This document shows positions 1,145 to 62,589 of a stretch of DNA of 64,000 nucleotides, piece after piece. Each line of letters begins with the position of its first letter. The first letter of the stretch is position 1. A model generated the notes under the pieces. It saw only the letters and a program-made list of their open reading frames with translations, searched no databases and was not told the origin of the DNA. The translations under genes and the position numbers were made by a program. The stretch lies in assembly GCF_027923585.1 (NCBI RefSeq), contig NZ_BRPL01000002.1:186001-250000 (forward strand). The letters run 5' to 3'. Source of the stretch: Philodulcilactobacillus myokonensis. GTDB lineage: Bacteria; Bacillota; Bacilli; Lactobacillales; Lactobacillaceae.

Positions 1145-1735
1145 ATGATTAAAAATACATTGAAGTATTCAGCTGCTGCATTATTAGCATTGGGTCTACT
1201 TGGTGGGGCTTTAGCAACTCCAACTAATGCCAGTGCTAAACGCCATGTCCGTGTAAGCAGAAAGGCTCATCGTCATTCTCATAAACGTCGTGCTAGAAGA
1301 CATGTCAGTCGTAAGCATAATACTCGTAGGGTAGCTCGTAGACGTCATCGTTCTCATAATCCAAAGTATAATACTGCTGAACAGGATGTAAATGCTTATA
1401 ACCATATGGTATTGATTGCAGATTCAGGCGGTCCAGTAGCGAATTTAAGTGCTAATACTAATTCACGACAAGATATTAGTGATGATTTAATAGAACAAGC
1501 TAATAGCCTTGATAGTAGTGGTGGAGCTACCGTAGAAGATGGACAAATGTCAACTAATGAAGAATTATTTACAAGCTTAAACAATTTGTTTAAAGGTCGT
1601 TTTAATTCTCATACTAATTCTCAATTAAACAATGAATATAATCAAATTAAAAATAGTGATACTACAAATATTAATGCAAATGTCTCTACATACATGAGAA
1701 CATTAGGAAATGCTATTAATAACAAGTGGCACTAA
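1145..1735 (+). CDS. Secreted Arg/His-rich protein, paralogue 1
   Basis: 196 residues. The ATG follows AAAGGGG at good spacing. Residues 1-31 are a Sec signal peptide ending in NASA. They are followed at 32-74 by a strongly basic tract of Arg, His and Lys, then a neutral to acidic Asn/Ser/Asp-rich domain containing the motif LNNLFKGRF. Three neighbours downstream share this plan and gene 3175 carries the C-terminal domain twice, so this is a local tandem family. I know no enzyme or binding family that matches. Inference: the basic tract could hold the protein on anionic wall polymers (teichoic acids) or DNA. It has its own promoter and terminator. Confidence 0.85.
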   Translation: MIKNTLKYSAAALLALGLLGGALATPTNASAKRHVRVSRKAHRHSHKRRARRHVSRKHNTRRVARRRHRSHNPKYNTAEQDVNAYNHMVLIADSGGPVANLSANTNSRQDISDDLIEQANSLDSSGGATVEDGQMSTNEELFTSLNNLFKGRFNSHTNSQLNNEYNQIKNSDTTNINANVSTYMRTLGNAINNKWH

Positions 1736-1750
1736 AAAAATAAAAAATAG

Positions 1751-1788
1751 ATCAACATCCCCATTAATTTAGGAATGCTGATTTTTTT
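1751..1788 (+). terminator. Intrinsic terminator after paralogue 1
   Basis: Imperfect stem ATCAACATCCCC / GGAATGCTGAT around a short AT loop, followed by seven T. It forms the left part of the second copy of the duplicated intergenic segment. Confidence 0.6.
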
Positions 1789-1855
1789 GTAAATTAAAAG
1801 TCCATCTACAACAGCGTTTTTAGAAAGAATATAATAATAATTGTCAAAAATATAT
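1755..1855. repeat. Copy 2 of the 101-nt duplicated intergenic segment
   Basis: Gapless partner of 1021-1121. It contains a working-looking terminator on the left and a promoter (TCTACA, 19 nt, TATAAT at 1830-1835) on the right that would drive the genes at 1876, 2516 and 3175. Confidence 0.75.
1805..1835 (+). promoter_or_regulatory. Promoter of the second to fourth secreted paralogues
   Basis: TCTACA at 1805-1810 and TATAAT at 1830-1835 with a 19-nt spacer, the same arrangement as before paralogue 1. No terminator is visible between 1876 and 4416, so it probably serves three genes. Confidence 0.5.
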
Positions 1856-1875
1856 GAAAAGGAGATTGATTTACA

Positions 1876-2502
1876 ATGCAAAATAAATATAAGTATGCAG
1901 TTGCGACGCTATTAGCATTAGGTGTTTTAGGTGGTAGTACTATTACTGCACAAAATGCTAGTGCTAAGCGTCACGTTCGAGTTACTAGGAAAGTACATAA
2001 ACATGCTAGAAGACATCGTGCAAAAAGACATTTTTATAGTAAAAGACTATCTAAAAAAGAAATTTCTAAAAAAATGATTGCTTATCTGGATGACGATGAT
2101 GGTAACGGTGATTTAGATTCAAGTGGCTTAACTAATACAGTTGCAGATGATGATTATCCGGATGGCATCGATGGTGTTTATGAATATTTATTAAATCAAA
2201 CTGATATGGAACGTATTTCATATACTAATCATAAAGAGGCTAATGATGATGCTTTTTGTTTATATACAGGCGGTTGGGCTAATTCATTACCTATTGCGAA
2301 AAAATATATTAGATTATTAAACAATATTTTTATTAATAACGTAAAAAGTAAGTATAAAAAGAATCTTAATAGTAAATTAAAGGACGTTGAACATAGTAAT
2401 ACTCATAATGCTAATAAGAATCTTTATAAGTACTACAATGAGTTAACTAAAGCTGTAAAAGATACATGGAATGCAAGAATTTATGATAATATAGCTGATT
2501 AA
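1876..2502 (+). CDS. Secreted Arg/His-rich protein, paralogue 2
   Basis: 208 residues. AAAAGGAG lies upstream of the ATG. Signal peptide 1-30 ends in NASA. A basic tract (about 31-65) begins with KRHVRVTRK, nearly the same as in paralogues 1 and 4. An Asp-rich stretch follows (DDDDGNGD), then a helical C-terminal half with LNNIF, the counterpart of LNNLF in paralogue 1. One cysteine. Only 13 nt separate it from the next gene, so 1876-4416 is probably one transcript. The function is unknown and membership in the local family is clear from sequence. Confidence 0.85.
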   Translation: MQNKYKYAVATLLALGVLGGSTITAQNASAKRHVRVTRKVHKHARRHRAKRHFYSKRLSKKEISKKMIAYLDDDDGNGDLDSSGLTNTVADDDYPDGIDGVYEYLLNQTDMERISYTNHKEANDDAFCLYTGGWANSLPIAKKYIRLLNNIFINNVKSKYKKNLNSKLKDVEHSNTHNANKNLYKYYNELTKAVKDTWNARIYDNIAD

Positions 2503-2515
2503 AAAGGAGATTAAA

Positions 2516-3154
2516 TTGAATAAATCATATTTAAAATATTTAACATTAGTTTTATTAGCATTTGGCACATTAGGTGGTTATGTAATTACTAATCAAAACG
2601 CTAATGCTAAGCATATAGTTATAATACAAGGAAATAAAAAAGTAAGAAAACATGTTAAAAGAAGGCATCTAAACAAGAAATTAAATCAGCGCCGATTAAA
2701 GTTGCAATTATTTAAGCAATTTAATAGTTATATGACAACTGATAATAATAATATATCATATTCATGTCTTTTAGGGCCTAGTAATACTTTAATGAGTGAT
2801 GATCTTGATAGTGTAACATTAGGCACTTCATCTCACGATGCTTCTAAGAAAATGAATACTATTTATAATATTTTAGAAAACATGGTTAAAGATCAGCATA
2901 CTGATTATGCCGATTTTTTTAACGAAAATGCAGTTAGAGCAGATAAATCAACATTAAAACCAACAAGAAGAGCAACTAAACATTTAGCAAATATGTTTGT
3001 TAAATACTATAGTCGTAAAGATAAATATAATGTAAACAAAACATTGAAAGCGGTTCAACATAGTGGTGTTCATGGACTTAACAAGAAATGTTATTATTTC
3101 CTTCAGTCATTAGCTAAAGGATTTAAAGATACTTGGCATACTAGTGAATATTAA
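2516..3154 (+). CDS. Secreted basic protein, paralogue 3
   Basis: 212 residues starting at TTG, preceded by AAAAGGAG. Signal peptide about 1-31 ends in NANA. The basic tract is Lys-rich and more diverged (KKVRKHVKRRHLNKK). The C-terminal 70 residues align with paralogue 2: both carry an HSG or HSN motif, an NK-rich segment and end in KDTWH or KDTWN. This is the most diverged copy of the set. Function unknown; probably exported and wall-associated like its neighbours. Confidence 0.8.
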   Translation: MNKSYLKYLTLVLLAFGTLGGYVITNQNANAKHIVIIQGNKKVRKHVKRRHLNKKLNQRRLKLQLFKQFNSYMTTDNNNISYSCLLGPSNTLMSDDLDSVTLGTSSHDASKKMNTIYNILENMVKDQHTDYADFFNENAVRADKSTLKPTRRATKHLANMFVKYYSRKDKYNVNKTLKAVQHSGVHGLNKKCYYFLQSLAKGFKDTWHTSEY

Positions 3155-3174
3155 TATTTAAGGAGAACAGAATA

Positions 3175-4416
3175 ATGCTTAAAAATACATTAAAATATTC
3201 AACCGCTGCTTTACTAGCACTGGGCTTACTTGGTGGATCAATAATTAGTTCAACAAATGCTAGTGCTAAACGAAAAGTTCGAGTTACCAGAAAAACATAT
3301 AAACACCATGCTAAAAAACGAGCAGTTCATCATGTTTCCGAGGCTGAAAAAAATATTGTTGATCAGTTTAATAAAATTATCGGGGATGATGTTCCAAACT
3401 CAACCCTTGCTAATACTGGTTTTAAGAGCAACGCTAAATCTTATCAACAATTAGGTAACAATTTAAGTCAGTATAATTCCAATGATAAATTGGATTATTC
3501 GGATCCAAGCAATGATCAAGGAACCCATAAATTATTTAATGATTTGAGTCAATTGTTCAACCATCGTTTTGGTATTAATGATAATAATTCCCTGATTAGT
3601 GATAATGACAATATTCAACGGGATGGCAATCAAGATGATGATCATTCATTGAATACTGATGCATTCCAATACCTTGAAGACTTACAGAGTGCAATGCAAA
3701 ATAGCCATTTATATTACAACAAGGCTGAAGCAGAAAATGATAAGGCTTTTGATAAAGCCAACGCTGAATTCATGCATCATTCAACTAAAAAACACGTTAG
3801 TTATCGCTTAAATGGTAAAGTTTATCGTTCTAAGCATTTGAAACACCGTGTTTACATTAAACATAATGCTAAATTAAACATTTTAAAACGTTCCCATATA
3901 AAATTAAGACATCGTAAGGTAAACGTTGATTATATTAAGGCTAATGGTAAAAAAGGCTGGATTAAAGCAAGTCAAGTTAAAAAAGTTGTTTCTAAATCTA
4001 AGAAACAATCCAATCATAAAAGCGTTACTAAACCTAAAATTGATATGGAATTAGTTAACACAATGAAGTATAACAACTTACTTGATAAAGAATTAAAGAA
4101 TACAATGTTTGCAGATTCAGGAATGGATGATCAAACTAGACAAAATTCTGACATTGCTGATAATCTAAATACAGTTGTTGTTAATGATGATCCTAATAAT
4201 GGAACCAATTTAACCACAGATAATATTCAAAATTCTAAGCAATTTATTAATGATTTGAACAACATTTTTAAAGGCCAATTTAATACAGACAAAAATAATG
4301 AATTAAATGCTGAAAACAGCAGAGTCCAAAATGATGACATTAATTCACTTACTAAGGATGCTGTTAATTATTTCAATACTTTAAGTCATGATATTTATAG
4401 CATCAGTAATAATTAA
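3175..4416 (+). CDS. Secreted basic protein, paralogue 4, two-domain form with SH3-like module
   Basis: 413 residues, twice the length of its neighbours. Signal peptide about 1-31, basic tract 32-52 (KRKVRVTRK), then copy 1 of the Asn/Asp-rich domain (about 55-175, motif LSQLFNHRF). A central Lys/His-rich module (about 200-265) has the look of SH3-like or SLAP wall-binding domains of lactobacilli (NGKVYRSK, then NGKKGWIKASQV). Copy 2 of the domain follows (about 285-410, motif LNNIFKGQF). Copy 2 resembles paralogue 1 more than copy 1 does. Inference: a wall-anchored form of the family. It ends the cluster and is followed by a strong terminator. Confidence 0.85.
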   Translation: MLKNTLKYSTAALLALGLLGGSIISSTNASAKRKVRVTRKTYKHHAKKRAVHHVSEAEKNIVDQFNKIIGDDVPNSTLANTGFKSNAKSYQQLGNNLSQYNSNDKLDYSDPSNDQGTHKLFNDLSQLFNHRFGINDNNSLISDNDNIQRDGNQDDDHSLNTDAFQYLEDLQSAMQNSHLYYNKAEAENDKAFDKANAEFMHHSTKKHVSYRLNGKVYRSKHLKHRVYIKHNAKLNILKRSHIKLRHRKVNVDYIKANGKKGWIKASQVKKVVSKSKKQSNHKSVTKPKIDMELVNTMKYNNLLDKELKNTMFADSGMDDQTRQNSDIADNLNTVVVNDDPNNGTNLTTDNIQNSKQFINDLNNIFKGQFNTDKNNELNAENSRVQNDDINSLTKDAVNYFNTLSHDIYSISNN

Positions 4417-52258: not shown

Positions 52259-52322
52259 GGTCATATATAGTTGACACATAAATTAATCTTAGTTATGATT
52301 TAATTGTCGTATATATATGACA
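52259..52322 (+). promoter_or_regulatory. Promoter with two palindromic operators
   Basis: Near-consensus promoter TTGACA (52271-52276), 17-nt spacer, TATGAT (52294-52299). Two related near-palindromes flank it: GGTCATATATAGTTGACA (52259-52276), covering the -35, and TGTCGTATATATATGACA (52305-52322), covering the start of the transcript. Probable binding sites of the XRE protein encoded next. Confidence 0.7.
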
Positions 52323-52336
52323 TGGAGGAAAACATC

Positions 52337-52528
52337 TTGAATCGTGTAAAAGAGTATCGTAATCGACAGCATTTAACACAGTTTCAATTATCTAAACGGG
52401 TCGGTGTCGCTCGCCAGACCATCAATTTAATTGAAAACAATAAGTATAATCCATCGCTAGATTTATGTATCAAATTGGCCAAGACGCTAGGGACAGATTT
52501 GAACAGTTTATTTTGGGAGGATGAATGA
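52337..52528 (+). CDS. Small XRE-family transcriptional regulator
   Basis: 63 residues from the TTG at 52337, 8 nt after GGAGG; an in-frame TTG at 52304 lies inside the operator. Nothing but a helix-turn-helix: LTQFQLSKRVGVARQTINLIE and NPSLDLCIKLAKTL. This compact type is usually paired with a DUF3278 membrane protein, here overlapping by 4 nt (ATGA). Palindromes in the promoter suggest it represses the whole 52.3-54.5 kb set. Confidence 0.9.
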   Translation: MNRVKEYRNRQHLTQFQLSKRVGVARQTINLIENNKYNPSLDLCIKLAKTLGTDLNSLFWEDE

Positions 52529-53055
52529 TGAAAAGGAAAAATTCAATTTATGAAAAAATTGTTAAACACTTTTTTGGCATCAAACAATTAGATGAATATA
52601 AATTACATAAAGTTGAACGTATTGGAAATTTAATGTTCATGGCTGATTTCTTTTTATTACTACTTAGTGTGTGTATAGCTGGTATTTTTGCAACTATGAA
52701 TTCTAATTTTGAGATTATACTGCTTTGCTTAATGGGATTTGATTTTGCATTAGTAATGATTGAGGCTTTGATTACGATTGTCTGTAATATTCGTTATAAA
52801 CTGGATCAAATTGATGTTGATGTAAATTCAACTAAGCAGACTTATAAAAAATTGATTTTTAAAGGAATTGGAATGGCACTTCGTTTTGGCTTTTTTATGT
52901 ATATTTGGATGGGCTTTATGAATCATCTTGAGGGAGCAAGTTGGCAATCATCATTTACATCAATATCACTCATTAAATCATCAGTTAAAAGTGGAATTAT
53001 TTTTGGTTTAATAATGTCAATCTATCAAATTTTTAGAATTAAAAAAATGAAATAA
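52525..53055 (+). CDS. DUF3278 membrane protein, copy 1
   Basis: 176 residues, GGGAGG before the ATG. Starts with the DUF3278 hallmark FGIKQLDEYKLHKVERIGN, then two pairs of membrane helices joined by a Lys/Asp loop (DQIDVDVNSTKQTYKK). Copies 2 (53458) and 3 (53998) repeat this plan. The domain's function is unknown; it regularly occurs with small XRE regulators. Translationally coupled to the regulator. Confidence 0.85.
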   Translation: MMKRKNSIYEKIVKHFFGIKQLDEYKLHKVERIGNLMFMADFFLLLLSVCIAGIFATMNSNFEIILLCLMGFDFALVMIEALITIVCNIRYKLDQIDVDVNSTKQTYKKLIFKGIGMALRFGFFMYIWMGFMNHLEGASWQSSFTSISLIKSSVKSGIIFGLIMSIYQIFRIKKMK

Positions 53056-53083
53056 TTGAAATTAATAAAAGAAGGTTAATATC

Positions 53084-53434
53084 ATGCAATATGAAGATGA
53101 TGATTGGCTTATTAGGCAATTGAAACAAAGTGCGAAGGGAATTGCTGAAATTTTTTCAGGTAAAAATGATGGTGATAGCAAAATTATTTTTCATCAAGAA
53201 AATAAAATGAAATTGCCACATCAACGGGAAATTAATGATTTAATTAAAAAGCATCAATATTCTAAGGCAGCAAATCGATTATTAGATTTAAAATATGCGA
53301 TGAGTGAGAATGACTTTCAAAAATTAGGCATTTGGTTCTATTCGAAATTAAACCACAAGGATTTTAATGTGAAAGATTATTCAAGATCGTCTTTGTTAGC
53401 GGGACTAGAACAAATTAAAAGAGCAAAACTATGA
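53084..53434 (+). CDS. DUF6483-like small cytosolic protein
   Basis: 116 residues, GAAGG before the ATG. Starts with DDDWLIRQLKQSAKGIAEIFSGK, the pattern of the DUF6483 family as I know it; the rest is helical, possibly a TPR-like pair (YSKAANRLLDL). It sits between two DUF3278 genes. Function unknown. Confidence 0.7.
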   Translation: MQYEDDDWLIRQLKQSAKGIAEIFSGKNDGDSKIIFHQENKMKLPHQREINDLIKKHQYSKAANRLLDLKYAMSENDFQKLGIWFYSKLNHKDFNVKDYSRSSLLAGLEQIKRAKL

Positions 53435-53457
53435 CTATATAAATGAGGTGATTTTTC

Positions 53458-53985
53458 GTGCATAAATCCCTATATAATTGGTTAATCAAGTTGATCTTCG
53501 GTGTTCACCAATTGGATGAGTACCGAAAGCGAAAAATTGAACATCTTGGAACTTACTTGTTTATGATTGATTTCATTTTGCTCATTGTTATGTTTTTAAG
53601 CATTATGCTTCTTTCAATTTTAAACATCAATCAGAACCAGATCCTATTTCCATGCTATTTAATTTTAGGTGTAGTTCTTTTAATTAATTGGCTAGTAATT
53701 GATTTTTACGTCCAAAAGTTTAAGTTATCATTGGTAGAAATTGATCAGAAAAATATTGATGAAATTAGAAATAAACTGATCAAAAGAAGTATTTATTATT
53801 TTGTTTTTGGCTTTACAGTAATGGGATTTGTTTCTAGTCATAAGATTGATGGTTCATTATTTAATGGAATCAAACATTCGTTTACTAATGTGAATGTAAT
53901 TGCATCTAATTTACTTTTGGCATTTTTCTATTCATTAATGTATTTCGGTCGATTATGGAAAAATGTACGAAAATTTAAGAATTGA
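53458..53985 (+). CDS. DUF3278 membrane protein, copy 2
   Basis: 175 residues, GTG start after GAGGTG. Hallmark FGVHQLDEYRKRKIEHLG, two pairs of membrane helices and a loop with EIDQKNIDEIRNK. Clearly homologous to the proteins at 52525 and 53998. Twelve nucleotides separate it from copy 3. Confidence 0.8.
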   Translation: MHKSLYNWLIKLIFGVHQLDEYRKRKIEHLGTYLFMIDFILLIVMFLSIMLLSILNINQNQILFPCYLILGVVLLINWLVIDFYVQKFKLSLVEIDQKNIDEIRNKLIKRSIYYFVFGFTVMGFVSSHKIDGSLFNGIKHSFTNVNVIASNLLLAFFYSLMYFGRLWKNVRKFKN

Positions 53986-53997
53986 GAGGGATTTAAT

Positions 53998-54537
53998 ATT
54001 AATAACAAAAAATTATCTTTATACGATCTTTTAACTAAAAGAATTTATGGCATTAAGCAGTTAGACGAATACAAAAGGAGTAAAGCTGAACATGCTAGTA
54101 ATCTGTTTTTAATTTTCTTTTGGTTCATTTTCCCAGAAGAATTATTGATTGCGTTTATATGTGGGCTGATTTGGCCAACAGTCACACTGTATGTTTTTAT
54201 CAGCGTTAATTTTATATTGTTTTACATCTGGAATCTCTATGTGATCCATTACTTGCATAAATATAAGCTGGATGAAAACGATATTGATGTAAAGGACAGT
54301 AAGAAAATTAAGAGGAGGGTCGTGAGAAAAAGTATTTTAGCCGGCGTTTGGTTCTTTATTATTGAATTTGTTGTTTTAAATTTTGTCAATTCATTAATGG
54401 ACCATATTAGTTTTGTGAATGAAGTTAAACAAAACTTTAACTGGTTTAGTTTAATTTCTTTGATAGTTATTTCAGCTCTGCTTTCAATTACATTTATGTT
54501 AATTTCATTTTCAAAAACCAAGAAATTTAAATCATAG
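53998..54537 (+). CDS. DUF3278 membrane protein, copy 3, probable AUU start
   Basis: 179 residues when read from ATT at 53998, 7 nt after GAGAGGG. The hallmark YGIKQLDEYKRSKAEHA lies between this ATT and the first ATG (54145), so a 54145 start would delete the conserved part. Between the stop of copy 2 and the ATT there is no ATG, GTG or TTG in frame. The codon context ATTAATAACAAAAAA is close to that of prsA (ATTAATAAAAAA). Two pairs of membrane helices, Lys-rich tail. Confidence 0.75.
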   Translation: MNNKKLSLYDLLTKRIYGIKQLDEYKRSKAEHASNLFLIFFWFIFPEELLIAFICGLIWPTVTLYVFISVNFILFYIWNLYVIHYLHKYKLDENDIDVKDSKKIKRRVVRKSILAGVWFFIIEFVVLNFVNSLMDHISFVNEVKQNFNWFSLISLIVISALLSITFMLISFSKTKKFKS

Positions 54538-54619
54538 CGTAATTTGCACAATGAGTTAAAGTTTGTTACTCTAATTTCTATCATCACTTTTTAATATACA
54601 TATGAAAGAAGGATTTTTA

Positions 54620-55120
54620 ATGCAAAGACCAAATCATGGTTATGTTGGATTTTTGAAAGCTTATGGGATGTACTGGAAGAACTACTTTAATTTTAGTGGT
54701 AATAGCAGTCGTTCTGAATACTGGTGGACATTTTTGTGGAATACAATTATTGGAATTGTAATCTCAATTCCAATGCTAATTTCGTTAATTTCTATGTTTG
54801 CACAGTTTGAACATAATAATTATTCTTTGAGTGGTGTTTCAATTTTTAGTTTGATTATGATCCTTATTTACTTTATTTGGGGTCTTGCTAATTTAATTCC
54901 GCAAATTTCATTGACAGTCAGACGTTATCATGATGTTAATTTTTCTGGTTGGTGGTATATTTTGACACCATTATTAGCTAGTCGTTTAGCTATTATTAGT
55001 ACTCATAATTGGACTGCAGTTGTAATTAGGACAATTGGATTTATCCTGCTAGCATTCTTTTTCTACCTGTTAATTAAGAATCCGGTTCGAACCAATAATA
55101 AATACATTAAAAATAATTAA
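54620..55120 (+). CDS. DUF805 membrane protein
   Basis: 166 residues from the ATG at 54620 after GAAGGA; an ATG at 54602 is in frame but sits before that site. DUF805 motifs FSGNSSRSEYWW and LTVRRYHDVNFSGWW; four membrane helices. Second DUF805 gene of the region (the other at 51801). Confidence 0.85.
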   Translation: MQRPNHGYVGFLKAYGMYWKNYFNFSGNSSRSEYWWTFLWNTIIGIVISIPMLISLISMFAQFEHNNYSLSGVSIFSLIMILIYFIWGLANLIPQISLTVRRYHDVNFSGWWYILTPLLASRLAIISTHNWTAVVIRTIGFILLAFFFYLLIKNPVRTNNKYIKNN

Positions 55121-55162: not shown

Positions 55163-55642
55163 ATGAATATTAAATTTGTCGTTGTTGGAAAATTGAAGGA
55201 AAAGTATTTTAAAGCGGGCATTGCTGAATATGCCAAACGAATGTCTCGGTTCTGTAAGTTTAAAATTGAAGAAGTTAAGGATGAACCCACTCCGGAAGGT
55301 GCTAGTCAAGCTCAAATGGATAAAATTATGGACATTGAGGGGACGAGAATCCTTGATCACATTAAGAATAACGAATATGTGTATGCACTGGCAATCTGGG
55401 GTAAAGAATTAACTTCTGAAAAATTTGCCAAGGAAATTAAGGATTTAATGACTTATGGTCATTCGAAGATTACCTTTGTGATTGGCGGTTCATTAGGTTT
55501 AGCTCCTAAAGTTTTGAAACGGGCTGATGAACAGATTTCGTTTGGTCGGTTTACAATGCCACACCAGTTAATGCGTTTAGTTTTGAGCGAACAGGTCTAC
55601 CGGGCATTTATGATTAATGAGGGTAGCCCATATCATAAATAG
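55163..55642 (+). CDS. rlmH: 23S rRNA (pseudouridine1915-N3)-methyltransferase RlmH
   Basis: 159 residues, GGAGTG before the ATG. SPOUT-fold enzyme that methylates pseudouridine 1915 in helix 69 of 23S r[23 protein letters not shown] start, SAM-binding knot with [13 protein letters not shown], then the C-terminal [18 protein letters not shown]. It usually follows htrA directly; here about 10 kb of other genes lie between. Confidence 0.97.
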
Positions 55643-57578: not shown

Positions 57579-57740
57579 TTAATCGTCGCAATCAGTTTGC
57601 TTCGGCATGATGTCAAACTCGTTTTGAAATTCATCATAGGATTTAACACCGTAATTTTCTGCAATTTTCTGGCCTAATTTTTGGTAGGCCAATTTTTGTG
57701 CGTCATTTTGTTGATTCTTTGTTTCATCGTTTTTAGCCAT
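57579..57740 (-). CDS. Small acidic cytosolic protein
   Basis: 53 residues from the ATG at 57740, which follows AGGAGG at good spacing; ten in-frame codons further upstream (to an ATG at 57770) precede that site. Asn/Gln/Asp-rich start, a probable helix (AQKLAYQKLGQKIAENYG), acidic tail ending in CDD. Own terminator. No known family. Confidence 0.65.
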   Translation of the reverse strand: MAKNDETKNQQNDAQKLAYQKLGQKIAENYGVKSYDEFQNEFDIMPKQTDCDD

Positions 57741-57815
57741 ATTTAAAACCTCCTTTAATTTCCTGGGCATTATTATACAACAAAATGATTTTAATGTGTG
57801 ATTAGATAATTTTAA

Positions 57816-57879
57816 TTTAATATTGCAATAAAAAAAGACGGTGGATCATATCCATCGTCTTTTAGGGAGATACCATTTT
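57816..57879 (+). repeat. Left 64-nt direct repeat flanking the STAND cassette
   Basis: Matches 61671-61734 at 63 of 64 positions (only 57825 g versus 61680 t differs). It contains the terminator hairpin AAAAGACGGTGGAT / ATCCATCGTCTTTT followed by AGGGAGATACCATTTT. Here no minus-strand gene ends nearby, so this is probably the added copy. Confidence 0.92.
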
Positions 57880-58047
57880 TAGTAAATGATTTTTTATAAA
57901 AATGATAATTAAAATTAGGAGGTATTTTAATTTTACTGGAAGATTGGTAAACTAACTATACAATTTAATTTATTATAATTCGTTAAAATAATAATGTATT
58001 TAAATACTATAATAAATAATATCATATTTATAAAAAGGAGAAATGTA
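57880..58047. other. AT-rich leader between the left repeat and the STAND gene
   Basis: 168 nt, very AT-rich. It contains TTAGGAGG (about 57916) followed by ATT-TTA-CTG-GAA-GAT-TGG and a stop: a well-formed ribosome site with only a six-codon frame, perhaps the remnant of a gene disrupted on insertion or a leader peptide. AAGGAG just before 58048 serves the nuclease frame. Confidence 0.35.
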
Positions 58048-58611
58048 ATGGACCGATTTAATCAAATTGAAGAAGGAATACGTATAATGGAAGGAGGACG
58101 CTTTCAAAAACTTTGTGATAGATATTTGCACCAGAAATATGGTTGGGAATTAAATACACCAGGATCGATGGATGGATCCAATAAAACTACTGCTGGTACA
58201 CCAGATTCTTATTTACATGATATATCCGATTCTTACATTTTAATGATGTATGGAACGCGTCAAGATTCTGAGAAAAAATTAATGTCGGATATTGATGATG
58301 CAAAAACAAAGGCTAAATTACCTAAAAATAAAATAAAAGGAATAGTTTGTTGTTATGCTGGATCAAATATTTCAGCAGAAGAGAATAATAAACTTGTTGA
58401 ATACGCTAAACCATATAGATTAAAATTAATTAGTTCAACGACAATAGCAAATGATTTATTAGATGAATATCATTCTTTAGCTTTAGATTTTTTTGATTTA
58501 CCTAAATGGACTGATCAAATAAATTCATTTGATAAATTTATTAATAAACATGACAAAAGTAAACTAATGCTCCATTATCAACATCCTATATTGATCAAAA
58601 TGATAGATTAA
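58048..58611 (+). CDS. Nuclease-like N-terminal part of a STAND-ATPase protein, truncated by frameshift
   Basis: 187 residues; AAAGGAG 7 nt before the ATG. Resembles the restriction-endonuclease-like domains placed in front of STAND ATPases: an N-terminal helix GGRFQKLCDRYLHQKYGWE, GTPDSY with the metal-binding type Asp, YILMMYGTRQ, then a KGIVCC strand. Relatives usually have Glu in the ExTxQ strand; Met here suggests weakened or lost nuclease activity. The last 16 residues or so (after HDKSK) are frame-shifted nonsense: the true continuation is in the next frame, from 58563. Probably the first domain of a 1207-residue protein. Confidence 0.7.
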   Translation: MDRFNQIEEGIRIMEGGRFQKLCDRYLHQKYGWELNTPGSMDGSNKTTAGTPDSYLHDISDSYILMMYGTRQDSEKKLMSDIDDAKTKAKLPKNKIKGIVCCYAGSNISAEENNKLVEYAKPYRLKLISSTTIANDLLDEYHSLALDFFDLPKWTDQINSFDKFINKHDKSKLMLHYQHPILIKMID

Positions 58612-61600
58612 ATGAAATTAAAAATTATATTCAAAACAATAAAATTATTGTTATTGAAGGAAATCCAGGTGTTGGAAAAACTAAACTTGCAATTGAAGCA
58701 TTAAGAATTTTTGATAAAAATCATAAAGATAATCAATGTTTATTTGTTAAAAATAATCAACAGCCTCTTTATAGTGATTTAAAAAATTTTTTATCAAAAA
58801 ATAGAATGAATTATGTTTTAATTGATGATGCAAATGAATTTAAAATTGACTATTTATATAGCGCTATTTCTTTATTAGATGAATATGATAATCTTCATTT
58901 TATTGTTACGATAAGAAATTATGCAGTGGACAATTTTAGACATAATATAAAAGACTATGAGTATAAATTATTTAATTTGGAAGCTGCTAAAAGAAAAACC
59001 GTTGAATCTATAATTAATGAAGATGATTTTATTTCTAAAAATCCTCTAATTAAAGATAAAATTCTTAATCTTTCTCACTCTAACCCTAGACAGGCTATCA
59101 TTGCAGTTAAATTAGTAAAACTAAAAGGTGAAAATATTTTAAATAATTCTAATGGAATTATGATTAATTATTATAGTCAAATAATTAAAGATGCTAATAT
59201 TTCCGATTCTTATTTAAAAACATTATTCATTATTGCTGTATTCAACAAAATAAAGTATCGCGATGAATCTAAAATAGATGGATTGATTAAAATGATGGGA
59301 TTAAATCATAATCAATTTGTTAAAAATATAATTCAGCTGAGTGATAAAGAGATTTGTAATATTTATCAAAAAGAGGTTGCAAGTATATCTGATCAATCTT
59401 TAAAAGATTATGTCTTGTATTTATTCTTGTTTGGTTCAAAAAAATTTACATTGAATGATTTATTATCAATTTTATTTAATTGTGGATTTAGTTATTTGCT
59501 TAATGCTTTAGAACATGCTAAATCTGTTAAGTTTAGTAATGATGAACGTTATTTATTAAAAAATGCTGTTTACAATTTTTATAGACACTCTGGTGAAAAA
59601 TTAAGTAAACAACAAAAAATTGAATTTTTGAAAGAATTTGGTAATTTTTTAGAGTCAGATGTTCTTAGATTGGGCATTTATTTAGCTGATAATGTTGAAA
59701 TTAAGAATCGTAATATTAATTTTAATTTAAATCAATTAAATCAAAAATATAATAATACTCAATGTGATAATTTTTTATCTCTTTTGAAAATTTTATTGAA
59801 AAATGATTTTAAAAAATATTATGGAAGTGTTATTGAACTAAGCATTACTTATCTTCAAAGGGATAATTCAACTATTAATATATTTGAAAATTTCTTTGTC
59901 GATATGTTTGGAATTGATCCTATTTTAAAAGATCAGCTATTTCATTTAAGATTAGGTCTTCCAATTTTTCATAATTGGATTATTAAATCTATTCCAATTA
60001 TTAACGAATGCTTATTATTTACTATGAGGGGGATTCTTAAACCTAGAGGCAGTAAAACAGTATATATTAATGATACTTATGGAATTGTGAACTATCATTT
60101 AAATGATAGTTTATTTGATGAAAAAATCTTAAAACAAATTTTTGATATATTAAAAGTAATTGCTAATCAAAATAAGTTTCCTAAAAATTCTCTTTTAAAA
60201 TTTATTCCTAATAATCTTATATATGATAAACATAATTTTAAAATCACAAAAACCTCATTAAGGCATATTCTAAAAATAGCAAGTGATTCTGAATCGATGG
60301 ATATAAATAAATATGATATTGATTTTATAAAATTAGAAATAGTTCATATAGATTATTTAGCTGGTAAAATATCATTAAATGATGTAATTAAGTCATTTAA
60401 TCCTTTTCAAAAATGTTTTTGGATTATGAACAATTATTGTGATAAAAATCAATATGGAGTTTTCAATGAAAATTTGCTATTGAATGATTATACGAATAAT
60501 GTAATCAATAAATTAAATGATTTTGCATTTGATTTATCATTATGTTTAAATAGTAATTTATCTAATTCATCTTCCATTAGATATAATTTTGCAAATATAG
60601 TTAAATTGATTTCTTCAAAAGAAAAACATGATTTGTTAAAAGAGCTTCTTAAAATCGGTTTAAAGAATGTAAACTATCTTACATCTTGTGTAATTGTAGA
60701 GGAATATGGAATTGTTAATTTTCTTAATGATTTTAAAGATCAATATAAAAATTCAATAATGCTGATGTATTTTGTCTATTCTACTAAATCGGATCCAACA
60801 ATTAATGATGTTGATATTTTATTTGATTTAATGAGTAGGTTGGATGAACATGATTGGTTAAATGTTTCTTATGAAAATATGAATAGTGGTTATCAAAAAA
60901 ATACTAAAATTATTGATTTGTTTGTAGATAAAACTATCGAATATAGTTCTTATGATAATTTTCAATTTAATTCTAAAGAAAGTGCAGATAATATTTTTAA
61001 TAACGTATCTTCAAAGAATAAACTTATTAAATGTTACTTAAGGGGATTTTATTTTACAATTGTTAATTCAATAGATATAGACTTTAAAAACAATTTATTC
61101 TTGTTAATTAAAGATGATTCTGATTTTCAAAGGTCAATATTAAATTTATTATTTAATAAAAATAATCAAATTTATTGGAATAATACACCAGAAATTTACT
61201 TAAAAATGTCTTTATTGTGGGAATCTTCATTCTTTCGGAATCTTATTAAAGAAAAAATATATAGTAAACAATTTAATCCTTTAAATTCAGCATGGAATTT
61301 TATTTTACATCCTAAAAATTATTCATCTGATAACTGGTTATTATCTAATTTAAAAATAACTAGTGAAATTAATGAAGCTCAAAATATAATGCAATTAATT
61401 AATCTTTATTTTAGTTATGATAAAGCAATTCCTTTTTTTAAAGTGATTGCTAGTAAACATTTTTCGCTAAATAAATTTAAATTATACAAAATTGAAAATT
61501 CATGGTTTGGTTCTGAAATACCAAGTATTAAAGAAAATATATCGTTTATTAAGAAAATAACTCCATTTTTTAGTAGTGCAGAAGATATATTATATTTAAA

Positions 61601-61670
61601 TACAAACGAGGAAATTTTACAAAATCGTATACGTCAAGTAACTATAGATGATTATGTTTATGATATTTAG
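58563..61670 (+). pseudogene. STAND P-loop ATPase with helical C-terminus, separated from its start by frameshift
   Basis: Open frame of 1035 codons with no ATG, GTG or TTG before 58806. Before that ATG it encodes Walker A GNPGVGKTK (58659-58685), so 58806 cannot be the natural start. Walker B is VLIDDAN, followed by a sensor-like IVTIRNY and a winged-helix-like region (SNPRQAIIAVKL); after that come about 800 helical, Asn/Ile/Lys-rich residues that may form sensor repeats. Restoring one A near 58562 fuses it to the nuclease-like domain. Novel STAND proteins of this plan often defend against phage; function here is inference. Very AT-rich; ends 1 nt before the right repeat. Confidence 0.7.
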
Positions 61671-61734
61671 TTTAATATTTCAATAAAAAAAGACGGTGGA
61701 TCATATCCATCGTCTTTTAGGGAGATACCATTTT
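61671..61734 (+). repeat. Right 64-nt direct repeat flanking the STAND cassette
   Basis: Begins immediately after the stop codon of the STAND gene and ends just before the stop of the minus-strand ykoE gene. Its hairpin with T-run on the minus strand (61685-61718) is the natural terminator of ykoE, so this is probably the original copy. Confidence 0.92.
61685..61718 (-). terminator. Terminator of ykoE, within right repeat
   Basis: Stem AAAAGACGGTGGAT / ATCCATCGTCTTTT (one G-T wobble), 3-nt loop, seven T on the minus strand. Confidence 0.85.
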
Positions 61735-61737
61735 AAA

Positions 61738-62295
61738 TTATTCCTTTACCAAGTGGCTCTTCTTCAAAGCCTTGATAATTAAAACGGGAATGATTCCGCC
61801 GAAAACGAAGGCGGAAATTAAGTTTACGATAAAAATCCAGAAGAGCAATCCAGCAGAGTAACTAGCGTAACCATTGGTGAATAGTTGATAAATAAAAGTG
61901 ACTGTCGTAGTTAAAATCAATGATAATGACAGACTGAAGTAGTTATACATTTTATAACCAGTCAATGCAAAACCTAATTCGGCACCAATCCCTTGGACTA
62001 AGCCGGATACAATCGTCATGATGCCCCATTGGCCACCTAAGATCATTTCAACGATGGCGCCGATGACTTCACTTAAAATTGCTGCACCTGGAATCTTGAA
62101 AATCATAGCACATAGTGGACTGGCAATGATCCAGAGACCAAATAGGGCAGCACCGGCCATGGGTGCTAGACCAACCGGTGTTAGAGCAGCCGTTAGTGCA
62201 TTATAGAAAAAGTCAGCCGACCAAAAAATAACTCCACAAAGAATTGAAATCATGGTTAACATGATGATGTTATGCAAGTTCCATCTTTTTAACAT
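61738..62295 (-). CDS. ykoE: ECF transporter S component for thiamine precursor, YkoE family
   Basis: 185 residues with five to six membrane helices. Substrate-binding subunit for hydroxymethylpyrimidine/thiamine that works with a shared ECF energising module (not encoded here). The YkoE plan is visible: LHNIIMLTMISILCGVIFW start, TPVGLAPMAGAALFGLW, and the GGQWGIMTIVSGLVQGIGAEL segment. AGGAGG precedes the ATG. A TPP riboswitch with terminator lies in its leader, which confirms the vitamin B1 link. Confidence 0.93.
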   Translation of the reverse strand: MLKRWNLHNIIMLTMISILCGVIFWSADFFYNALTAALTPVGLAPMAGAALFGLWIIASPLCAMIFKIPGAAILSEVIGAIVEMILGGQWGIMTIVSGLVQGIGAELGFALTGYKMYNYFSLSLSLILTTTVTFIYQLFTNGYASYSAGLLFWIFIVNLISAFVFGGIIPVLIIKALKKSHLVKE

Positions 62296-62343: not shown

Positions 62344-62365
62344 TCACATTTATGATTCATTTAAA

Positions 62366-62441
62366 CGATTCCCTCCGCCAGCATTATCTGGTTCAGGTTC
62401 AATGGGTATGATCTCAGCTAATTAAAGCACCCCCCTCAAGA
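62366..62441 (-). promoter_or_regulatory. TPP riboswitch (THI element)
   Basis: Minus strand shows the conserved parts in order: GGGGTGC near the 5' end, GCTGAGATCATACCC, TTGAACCTGA, GATAATGC and GGCGGAGGGAA. It senses thiamine pyrophosphate and controls ykoE. Confidence 0.95.
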
Positions 62442-62589
62442 AGTATTTAGTTTATAATTATGATACAAAATGAGAACTCTAAAGTCAATTTTGAACTTTG
62501 TTAATTAAATCACCCGCCTTAACTTATATATATTATTCATAACTATTTAGTGTTATGATAATATCAATTTAATCAAGGTGGGTGATTTA

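What the first reader, a model, noticed from the sequence alone, without database searches (positions are those of the whole stretch)
57816..61734. Nuclease-like/STAND ATPase cassette enclosed by a 64-nt direct repeat
A 3.6-kb, very AT-rich locus coding for a nuclease-like domain plus a P-loop STAND ATPase with about 800 residues of unrecognised helical sequence lies exactly between two copies of a 64-nt sequence (63/64 identical). The right copy is the terminator of ykoE and begins 1 nt after the stop codon of the cassette gene; the left copy has no gene to terminate. This looks like a recent gain in which the terminator was duplicated or used as a recombination site, with no integrase or transposase in sight. 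Domain make-up recalls anti-phage STAND proteins, but I cannot match it to a named system.
Basis: partly seen in the sequence, partly recalled or inferred. Interest (0 to 1): 0.85.

Follow-up and report, generated by a model that had tools for sequence, protein, structure and literature searches.

The report
Phage-defence-like gene between duplicated terminators
A foreign-looking, apparently frame-broken gene resembling bacterial anti-phage alarm proteins sits alone between two copies of a 64-letter terminator-like sequence, and some of its relatives in other bacteria also sit between duplicated chromosomal sites, which suggests that such genes can travel as small cargo cassettes with no recombinase of their own.

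Summary
Two 64-nt copies (57816-57879 and 61671-61734, 63/64 identical) are the only ones found in the genome and enclose 3,791 nt; this cassette is 22% G+C in a 34% G+C window. Inside is one gene: a PD-(D/E)xK-like domain, an nSTAND3 ATPase and a long helical C-terminus. Its frame is broken between the first two domains; 33 full-length relatives are single ORFs of 1,167-1,291 aa. No PADLOC Avs model matches. By fold the first domain is nearest Avs4, and the ATPase part resembles Avs5 among others. No empty site could be tested: no same-genus genome appeared in my searches. Relatives give indirect support. Four other loci lie between direct repeats that carry the rpsI or mnmG 3' end; with the window 5 of 27 loci against 0 of 40 control regions. 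Others follow rlmH or rpsI, lie at guaA, or sit inside BREX. No intact integrase was recognised in the five repeat-bounded units; one keeps a remnant. Best reading: an acquired, CIME-like cargo islet carrying a decayed Avs-like defence gene. Recombination at the terminator is inferred, not shown.

The parts
57816..57879 (.). left copy of the 64-nt repeat (terminator-like hairpin; proposed attL-like end)
   Evidence: 63/64 identical to the right copy; only two copies found in the genome; hairpin
57880..58047 (+). 168-nt AT-rich leader of the cassette
   Evidence: sequence and ORF list
58048..58611 (+). 5' frame of the cassette gene: PD-(D/E)xK-like domain (187 codons)
   Evidence: 28-69% identical to the N-termini of 19 relatives; AlphaFold model pLDDT 81, best VIA match the Avs4 nuclease domain, Z 11.6, 134 residues, rmsd 3.0
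58563..61670 (+). 3' frame of the same gene: nSTAND3 ATPase plus long helical C-terminus (1,035 codons); frame broken relative to the first part somewhere in 58563-58611
   Evidence: PF20720 at 1.8e-6, 28.2 bits against a cut-off of 27.2; single ORF in relatives; fold matches to Avs5 among others
61671..61734 (.). right copy of the 64-nt repeat; read as the terminator of ykoE on the minus strand (proposed attR-like end)
   Evidence: not listed by the consensus scan
61738..62295 (-). ykoE-like thiamin ECF substrate component, gene next to the right copy
   Evidence: PF09819 at 3.8e-37; TPP riboswitch at 62353-62444 minus
57579..57770 (-). 63-aa ORF next to the left copy, presumed old neighbour of ykoE before the gain
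   Evidence: ORF list; no Pfam match at E 1

Best explanation
The 3.9-kb unit is an acquired cargo islet of the CIME kind (an island that keeps its two att-like ends but no recombinase), holding a single anti-phage-type STAND gene that is now frame-broken. Proposed history: a circular or transferred DNA carrying the gene and a copy of the terminator recombined with the terminator behind ykoE, leaving one copy at each end. The recombinase came from elsewhere or was lost. Proposed function of the intact protein, by analogy with Avs proteins: the C-terminal helical region binds a phage protein, the nSTAND3 ATPase assembles the protein, and the N-terminal nuclease-like domain then damages nucleic acid and halts the infection. 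Shown: the repeat, its two copies, the composition, the gene's family, the frame break in the sequence as given, and the repeat-bounded setting of four relatives. Inferred: insertion at the terminator, recombinase in trans, nuclease activity, phage sensing. As sequenced, the gene should yield only the first domain, because no ATG, GTG or TTG opens the second frame before 58806, downstream of the P-loop at 58659.
For: The repeat was found twice in the genome and nowhere else in it. Cassette G+C is 22% against 34%. The gene is patchy: its N-domain was found in 17 of 395 genomes of the order and its ATPase part in 11 of 397 of the family, own genome counted in both. Four relatives lie between direct repeats of other sites: L062 (238 bp at 90%, with a 193-bp core at 95%, includes the last 49 bp of mnmG and a hairpin), L104 and L105 (rpsI 3' end, 51 bp at 98% and 107 bp at 93%), L148 (178 bp at 96% carrying the rpsI 3'-end sequence). 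With the window that is 5 of 27 loci, against 0 of 40 control regions (200 placements), Fisher p 0.008. L148's unit keeps a 112-aa tyrosine recombinase C-terminus beside one repeat. L077-L079 start 20-46 nt after rlmH, L069 follows rpsI, L066 lies at guaA. L073 lies between pglX and pglZ of a BREX operon. nSTAND3 is matched by 19 of 20 rows of A1, the other row presumably being the window's N-domain alone. Folds: Avs4 nuclease Z 11.6; Avs5 filaments 9nc9 and 9jap, 356 and 384 residues, though at rmsd 11 and 14. The rpsI 3' end is a published att site with 160-163 bp repeats (PMC5341023, passages). CIMEs are published as att-bounded units without recombination genes, 1.2-13 kb, in composite islands often at rpsI (PMC7563491, passages).
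Against: No empty site could be examined. The 64-nt repeat lies wholly between genes, not in a gene's 3' end as in the rpsI and mnmG cases. The repeat has no match better than E 0.7 over about 30 nt in 50,697 phage or 72,556 plasmid records, and its 23-nt core has no exact match in the viral contigs, so no attP is known. The genome holds three tyrosine-recombinase matches, none near the cassette and none tested further. 22 of 27 loci show no such repeat, and the closest relatives L077-L079 are among the loci without one. The canonical E-x-K of the nuclease motif is absent from the window's domain. PADLOC gives no Avs match, only weak mad8 matches: 1.2e-4 for the window and 8 of 20 rows of A1, best 4.4e-6. 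Clamp-loader ATPases fit the ATPase model as well as Avs5 does.
Confidence: 0.6

Rival explanations
1. Gain by ordinary homologous recombination or illegitimate repair: a donor fragment carrying the gene was copied in next to ykoE, and the terminator was duplicated by slippage or by the repair event. No site-specific recombinase was ever involved.
For: No att partner was found and no integrase lies near the cassette; the repeat is intergenic and starts flush with the gene's stop codon.
Against: Some relatives lie between duplicated ends of known integrase target genes, and one such unit keeps an integrase remnant.
Confidence: 0.22
2. Old resident gene near rlmH: three Lactobacillaceae relatives, among them the closest one found, lie directly behind rlmH, so the gene may have been kept in this region for long, with later gene insertions placing it 2.4 kb from rlmH and a chance duplication of the terminator.
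For: L077, L078 and L079 start 20-46 nt after rlmH; rlmH is at 55163-55642 in the window.
Against: 22% G+C; presence in only 11 of 397 family genomes; neither ykoE nor the 63-aa ORF is seen beside L077-L079 (by eye); the repeat copies are 63/64 identical.
Confidence: 0.12
3. The break of frame is an assembly error, and the cassette gene is intact and active.
For: The second frame has no stop in 1,035 codons; G785 shows a break at the same joint, in a gene split over two contigs, which could be an assembly fault as well.
Against: No obvious broken gene elsewhere in the 64-kb ORF map, judged by eye only; G194 has lost part of the same domain, so damage at this end of the gene also occurs elsewhere.
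Confidence: 0.25

Closest known systems
CIME (cis-mobilizable element) and other integrase-less islands, e.g. rpsI-linked units in streptococci and macrococci
   Same: Short unit bounded by direct repeats, no recombination or transfer genes, cargo only; relatives lie at the rpsI 3' end, a published target (PMC5341023 and PMC7563491, passages read).
   Different: The window unit holds one gene, and its repeat is an intergenic terminator-like hairpin and not the end of a coding gene; no ICE or IME ancestor or partner is seen.
Avs (AVAST) STAND proteins, types 4 and 5
   Same: N-terminal effector, STAND ATPase, helical C-terminus. The nuclease-like domain is nearest Avs4 by fold; nSTAND3 is also the ATPase class of Avs5 (PMC12931631, passages; folds).
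   Different: Combines an Avs4-like effector fold with an nSTAND3 ATPase as in Avs5; no PADLOC Avs model matches; the E-x-K motif is missing; phage ligand unknown.
SCC elements at rlmH (recalled, not from a call)
   Same: Three Lactobacillaceae relatives start right behind rlmH, and cargo-only SCC-like units are known (recalled).
   Different: The window cassette is 2.4 kb from rlmH and has another repeat; no duplication passing the threshold was seen around L077-L079; ccr genes were not searched for.
Integron gene cassette
   Same: One gene plus one hairpin-bearing presumed recombination site, no recombinase.
   Different: Neither 64-nt copy contains GTT or AAC, which attC ends need (motif recalled).

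Membership tests
CIME / integrase-less island | direct repeats (att-like) at both ends | tested here: met
   64-nt repeat, 63/64, only two copies found in the genome
CIME / integrase-less island | no recombination or transfer genes inside | tested here: met
   one gene inside, with no such domain
CIME / integrase-less island | repeats are recombination sites of a known integrase | tested here: inconclusive
   no partner found in phages, plasmids or viral contigs; relatives have rpsI and mnmG ends
CIME / integrase-less island | derived from an ICE or IME; excision or mobilization | not testable with these tools
   needs related elements or circular-junction PCR or reads
Avs STAND defence proteins | STAND ATPase of the nSTAND class | tested here: met
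   PF20720 just above cut-off in the window; 19 of 20 rows of A1 at 0.001
Avs STAND defence proteins | N-terminal effector domain with nuclease fold | tested here: met
   AlphaFold model, Avs4 nuclease Z 11.6 over 134 residues, rmsd 3.0; Foldseek alone gives no match at E 0.001
Avs STAND defence proteins | intact D-E-x-K catalytic motif | tested here: not met
   D53 kept, E replaced by M in the window and 6 of 15 other rows, no K at the x-K place of the window (A3)
Avs STAND defence proteins | match to a curated Avs profile | tested here: not met
   PADLOC gives no Avs match for the window or the rows of A1, only weak mad8 and single others
Avs STAND defence proteins | phage-protein sensing and infection arrest | not testable with these tools
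   needs phage assays
Integron gene cassette | attC with RYYYAAC and GTTRRRY ends | tested here: not met
   no AAC or GTT in either 64-nt copy (motif recalled)
SCC element | insertion at the rlmH 3' end | tested here: not met
   rlmH ends at 55642, the cassette begins at 57816
SCC element | ccr recombinase or its remnants | not tested
   no search made

The most novel reading that the evidence does not exclude
The unit is a minimal one-gene mobile cassette whose recombination site is the terminator hairpin itself: gene plus 64-nt site, moved by a recombinase supplied in trans. It would be one case of a wider class in which a family of nuclease-like/nSTAND3 defence proteins spreads as recombinase-free cassettes that each carry a copy of their target's 3' end or terminator.
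Probability: 0.12. Interest if true: 0.75.

Novelty: new variant of a known kind. Interest (0 to 1): 0.48.

Why it matters
Anti-phage genes are known to move between strains, but the carrier is often unclear when no integrase or transposase is present. Here members of one uncharacterised family of alarm-type proteins are found, in different genera, inside units that consist of little more than the gene and a duplicated piece of its target. If that holds, such genes can be found by their repeats, and the question of how they move becomes testable by looking for circular forms. The family also joins an Avs4-like effector fold to an nSTAND3 ATPase like that of Avs5, a combination for which I found no PADLOC model.

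Tried and rejected
Integron-type attC was rejected on motif (motif recalled). A dispersed repeat family was rejected: two copies only. A phage or plasmid carrier was sought and not found: ATPase part in phages, no match; in plasmids only Leptospira with 29% or less of the query covered; N-domain in neither. In the viral contigs two loci held relatives, L102 and L103. A programmed frameshift was considered because G785 breaks at the same joint in the same direction; I saw no classical slippery heptamer in the overlap by eye, so I hold it unlikely. The idea that the insertion split the ykoEDC operon was rejected: the ykoD match stands 260 kb away, and by eye ykoDC is preceded by its own TPP-riboswitch-like leader and a hairpin. 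Sequence search of solved structures gave only generic P-loop and chance matches, best E 0.004, or none. A family that VIA-align does not list is not excluded. Literature: the Streptococcus thermophilus defence paper (PMC11514479, passages) and six searches (listings only) showed me no description of this protein family at these sites; that is no proof of absence.

Counts and dropped rows. Members in all: 33 distinct loci with a single full-length ORF (L065 and L104 are one genome and counted once); window, G785 (L147) and G194 (L021) broken; L071, L081, L103, L106, L116 and L133 partial, most of them near contig ends, not resolved. One search used 27 loci; left out were near-duplicates (L065, L068, L074, L075, L079) and loci with short flanks, contig ends or damage (L021, L071, L081, L102, L103, L106, L108, L116, L133, L145, L147). 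All 40 control regions come from genomes that carry a member, but 12 of the 27 loci come from genomes without a control region. The window is the discovery case; without it the count is 4 of 26 against 0 of 40, p 0.02 by my own arithmetic. The criterion (40 bp, 85%, 2.5 kb) was set after the repeats had been seen. With 7-kb flanks one search also showed weaker or more distant repeats in L063, L069, L110 and L146; its 20 control loci were shorter, with flanks of about 4 kb.
Full report
What is there. The window holds two copies of a 64-nt sequence, 57816-57879 and 61671-61734, 63 of 64 identical. A search of the own genome with the left copy finds only these two places. Each copy folds into a stable hairpin whose longer T run is on the minus strand; the simple consensus scan did not list it as a terminator. 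The right copy begins directly after the stop codon of the cassette gene and ends 3 nt before the stop of ykoE, so I read it as the ykoE terminator. The DNA between the copies has 22.1% G+C, the window 34.3%.

One gene, broken. The cassette has two overlapping frames, 58048-58611 and 58563-61670. Alignment with relatives shows that they are one gene: in the closest relative, L077, residues 1-173 match the first frame at 69% and 174-1197 the second at 36%. I count 33 distinct loci with a single full-length ORF of 1,167-1,291 aa, near-duplicates of one genus included. Besides the window, G785 is broken at the same joint and G194 lacks part of the first domain; six more hits are partial, most of them near contig ends, and were not resolved. 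In the window no ATG, GTG or TTG opens the second frame before 58806, downstream of the P-loop at 58659, so as sequenced the gene should make only the first domain. By eye the 64-kb ORF map shows no other obvious broken gene, but a sequencing error is not excluded.

What the protein is. The second frame matches nSTAND3 (PF20720) at 1.8e-6, just above the curated cut-off; 19 of the 20 rows of alignment A1 match it, and the twentieth is presumably the window's N-domain alone. The first domain has no Pfam, NCBIfam or PADLOC match of note. Its AlphaFold model (16 sequences, pLDDT 81) has a restriction-endonuclease-like order of helices and strands. VIA-align ranks the Avs4 nuclease domain first, Z 11.6 over 134 residues at rmsd 3.0, above AF1548 and MspJI at 9.4-9.8; Foldseek alone gives no match at E 0.001 or better, with EcoT38I at 2.3e-3 and Avs4 at 0.025. 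The conserved D53 stays, but the following glutamate is Met in the window and in 6 of 15 other rows of A3, and no canonical lysine follows in the window. Activity is therefore open. The ATPase part (model pLDDT 66, poor in the middle) matches EfAvs5 at Foldseek E 6.4e-6, second to human NLRP14, and Avs5 filaments over 356-384 residues at Z 15-15.6 but rmsd 11-14. Clamp loaders score as high over the ATPase domain alone, so this shows a fold and not a function. Avs5 is published as Sir2 effector plus nSTAND3 plus variable C-terminal repeats (PMC12931631, passages).

Where relatives sit. The N-domain was found in 17 of 395 genomes of the order, the ATPase part in 11 of 397 of the family, both counts including the own genome. 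L062 lies between repeats of 238 bp at 90% (193 bp at 95% in a stricter search) that include the last 49 bp of mnmG and a hairpin. In the mnmG loci of the other 21 genomes of that genus, 17 show a single match of 26-79 bp at the gene end and 4 none, but only 1.5 kb beyond the gene was held, so a distant second copy would be missed. L104 (Enterococcus ureilyticus) and L105 (a Staphylococcus) lie between repeats of the rpsI 3' end, and L148 between two copies of that same sequence, although rpsI itself was not looked for in L148. L104 has in addition a 155-bp, 85% repeat that carries a terminator-like hairpin by eye. L063 has a weak, 70% repeat next to rpsI. L069 follows rpsI, L066 lies at guaA, and L077-L079 begin 20-46 nt after rlmH; rpsI in L104, L105, L063 and L069, mnmG in L062, guaA in L066 and rlmH in L077-L079 were confirmed by NCBIfam. 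L073 lies between pglX and pglZ, with brxC upstream, in a BREX operon; in L074 pglZ was confirmed the same way. The unit of L148 holds a 112-aa C-terminal piece of a tyrosine recombinase. Apart from that, no recombinase was recognised in the repeat-bounded units: the other ORFs scanned gave HTH regulators, an Fst-like peptide or nothing, and the window unit has only the one gene.

Is the repeat setting more than chance? With one criterion, 5 of 27 loci had a flanking direct repeat and 0 of 40 control regions (200 placements) from member-bearing genomes, Fisher p 0.008. Without the window it is 4 of 26. Earlier controls: 0 of 69 and 0 of 56 placements, 0 of 20. The criterion was chosen after the repeats had been seen, 12 of the 27 loci lack a control from their own genome, and the loci are not fully independent, so this is support and not proof.

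Mechanism. Published work links tyrosine integrases to the rpsI 3' end, with repeats of 160-163 bp and a 61-bp core, and reports that an island lacking one repeat was not seen as a circle (PMC5341023, passages). CIMEs are published as islands that keep att sites but no complete recombination genes, 1.2-13 kb, in composite islands that include 16 at rpsI (PMC7563491, passages). The window unit has that layout. I therefore take it as a CIME-like cargo islet at the ykoE terminator. Not shown: the empty site, an attP, a recombinase, excision. The own genome has three tyrosine-recombinase matches, none beside the cassette.

Verdict. A real, repeat-bounded unit holding a probably acquired and probably decayed defence-type gene. 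It is a new variant of known kinds (integrase-less island; Avs-like STAND protein), with an effector-ATPase pairing for which I found no PADLOC model and a terminator as the presumed junction.

Noticed in passing
window 61738-62295 and G000:C2:508200-510600 (L218 5210-7266): ykoE stands alone at the window site under a TPP riboswitch, while ykoD and ykoC lie about 260 kb away behind what looks by eye like their own TPP riboswitch; in 18 of the 20 related loci fetched, ORFs of ykoD and ykoC size follow ykoE directly (by size).
   Followed up: partly
L073 7034-10747 and L074 6932-10645: Members of the same STAND family sit between pglX and pglZ inside BREX operons of Lactobacillaceae (pglX of L074 by eye).
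   Followed up: partly
L148 4805-11002: Unit with repeats of the rpsI-end sequence that keeps a 112-aa tyrosine recombinase C-terminus, a possible intermediate in loss of the integrase.
   Followed up: no
L104 4557-4736: A 60-aa ORF like the type I toxin Fst (just under the Pfam cut-off) and an XRE regulator accompany the STAND gene in Enterococcus.
   Followed up: no
L147 6740-9142 (G785): A distant relative broken at the same joint between nuclease-like and ATPase domains, in the same direction as in the window; the rest of the gene lies on another contig.
   Followed up: partly
window 1145-4416: Four adjacent ORFs with very similar secretion-type N-termini, apparently a tandem gene family.
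   Followed up: no
window 52304-55120: Cluster of an XRE regulator, small membrane proteins and a DUF805 protein just before rlmH; an XRE gene and membrane genes also follow the STAND gene behind rlmH in L078 and L079.
   Followed up: no
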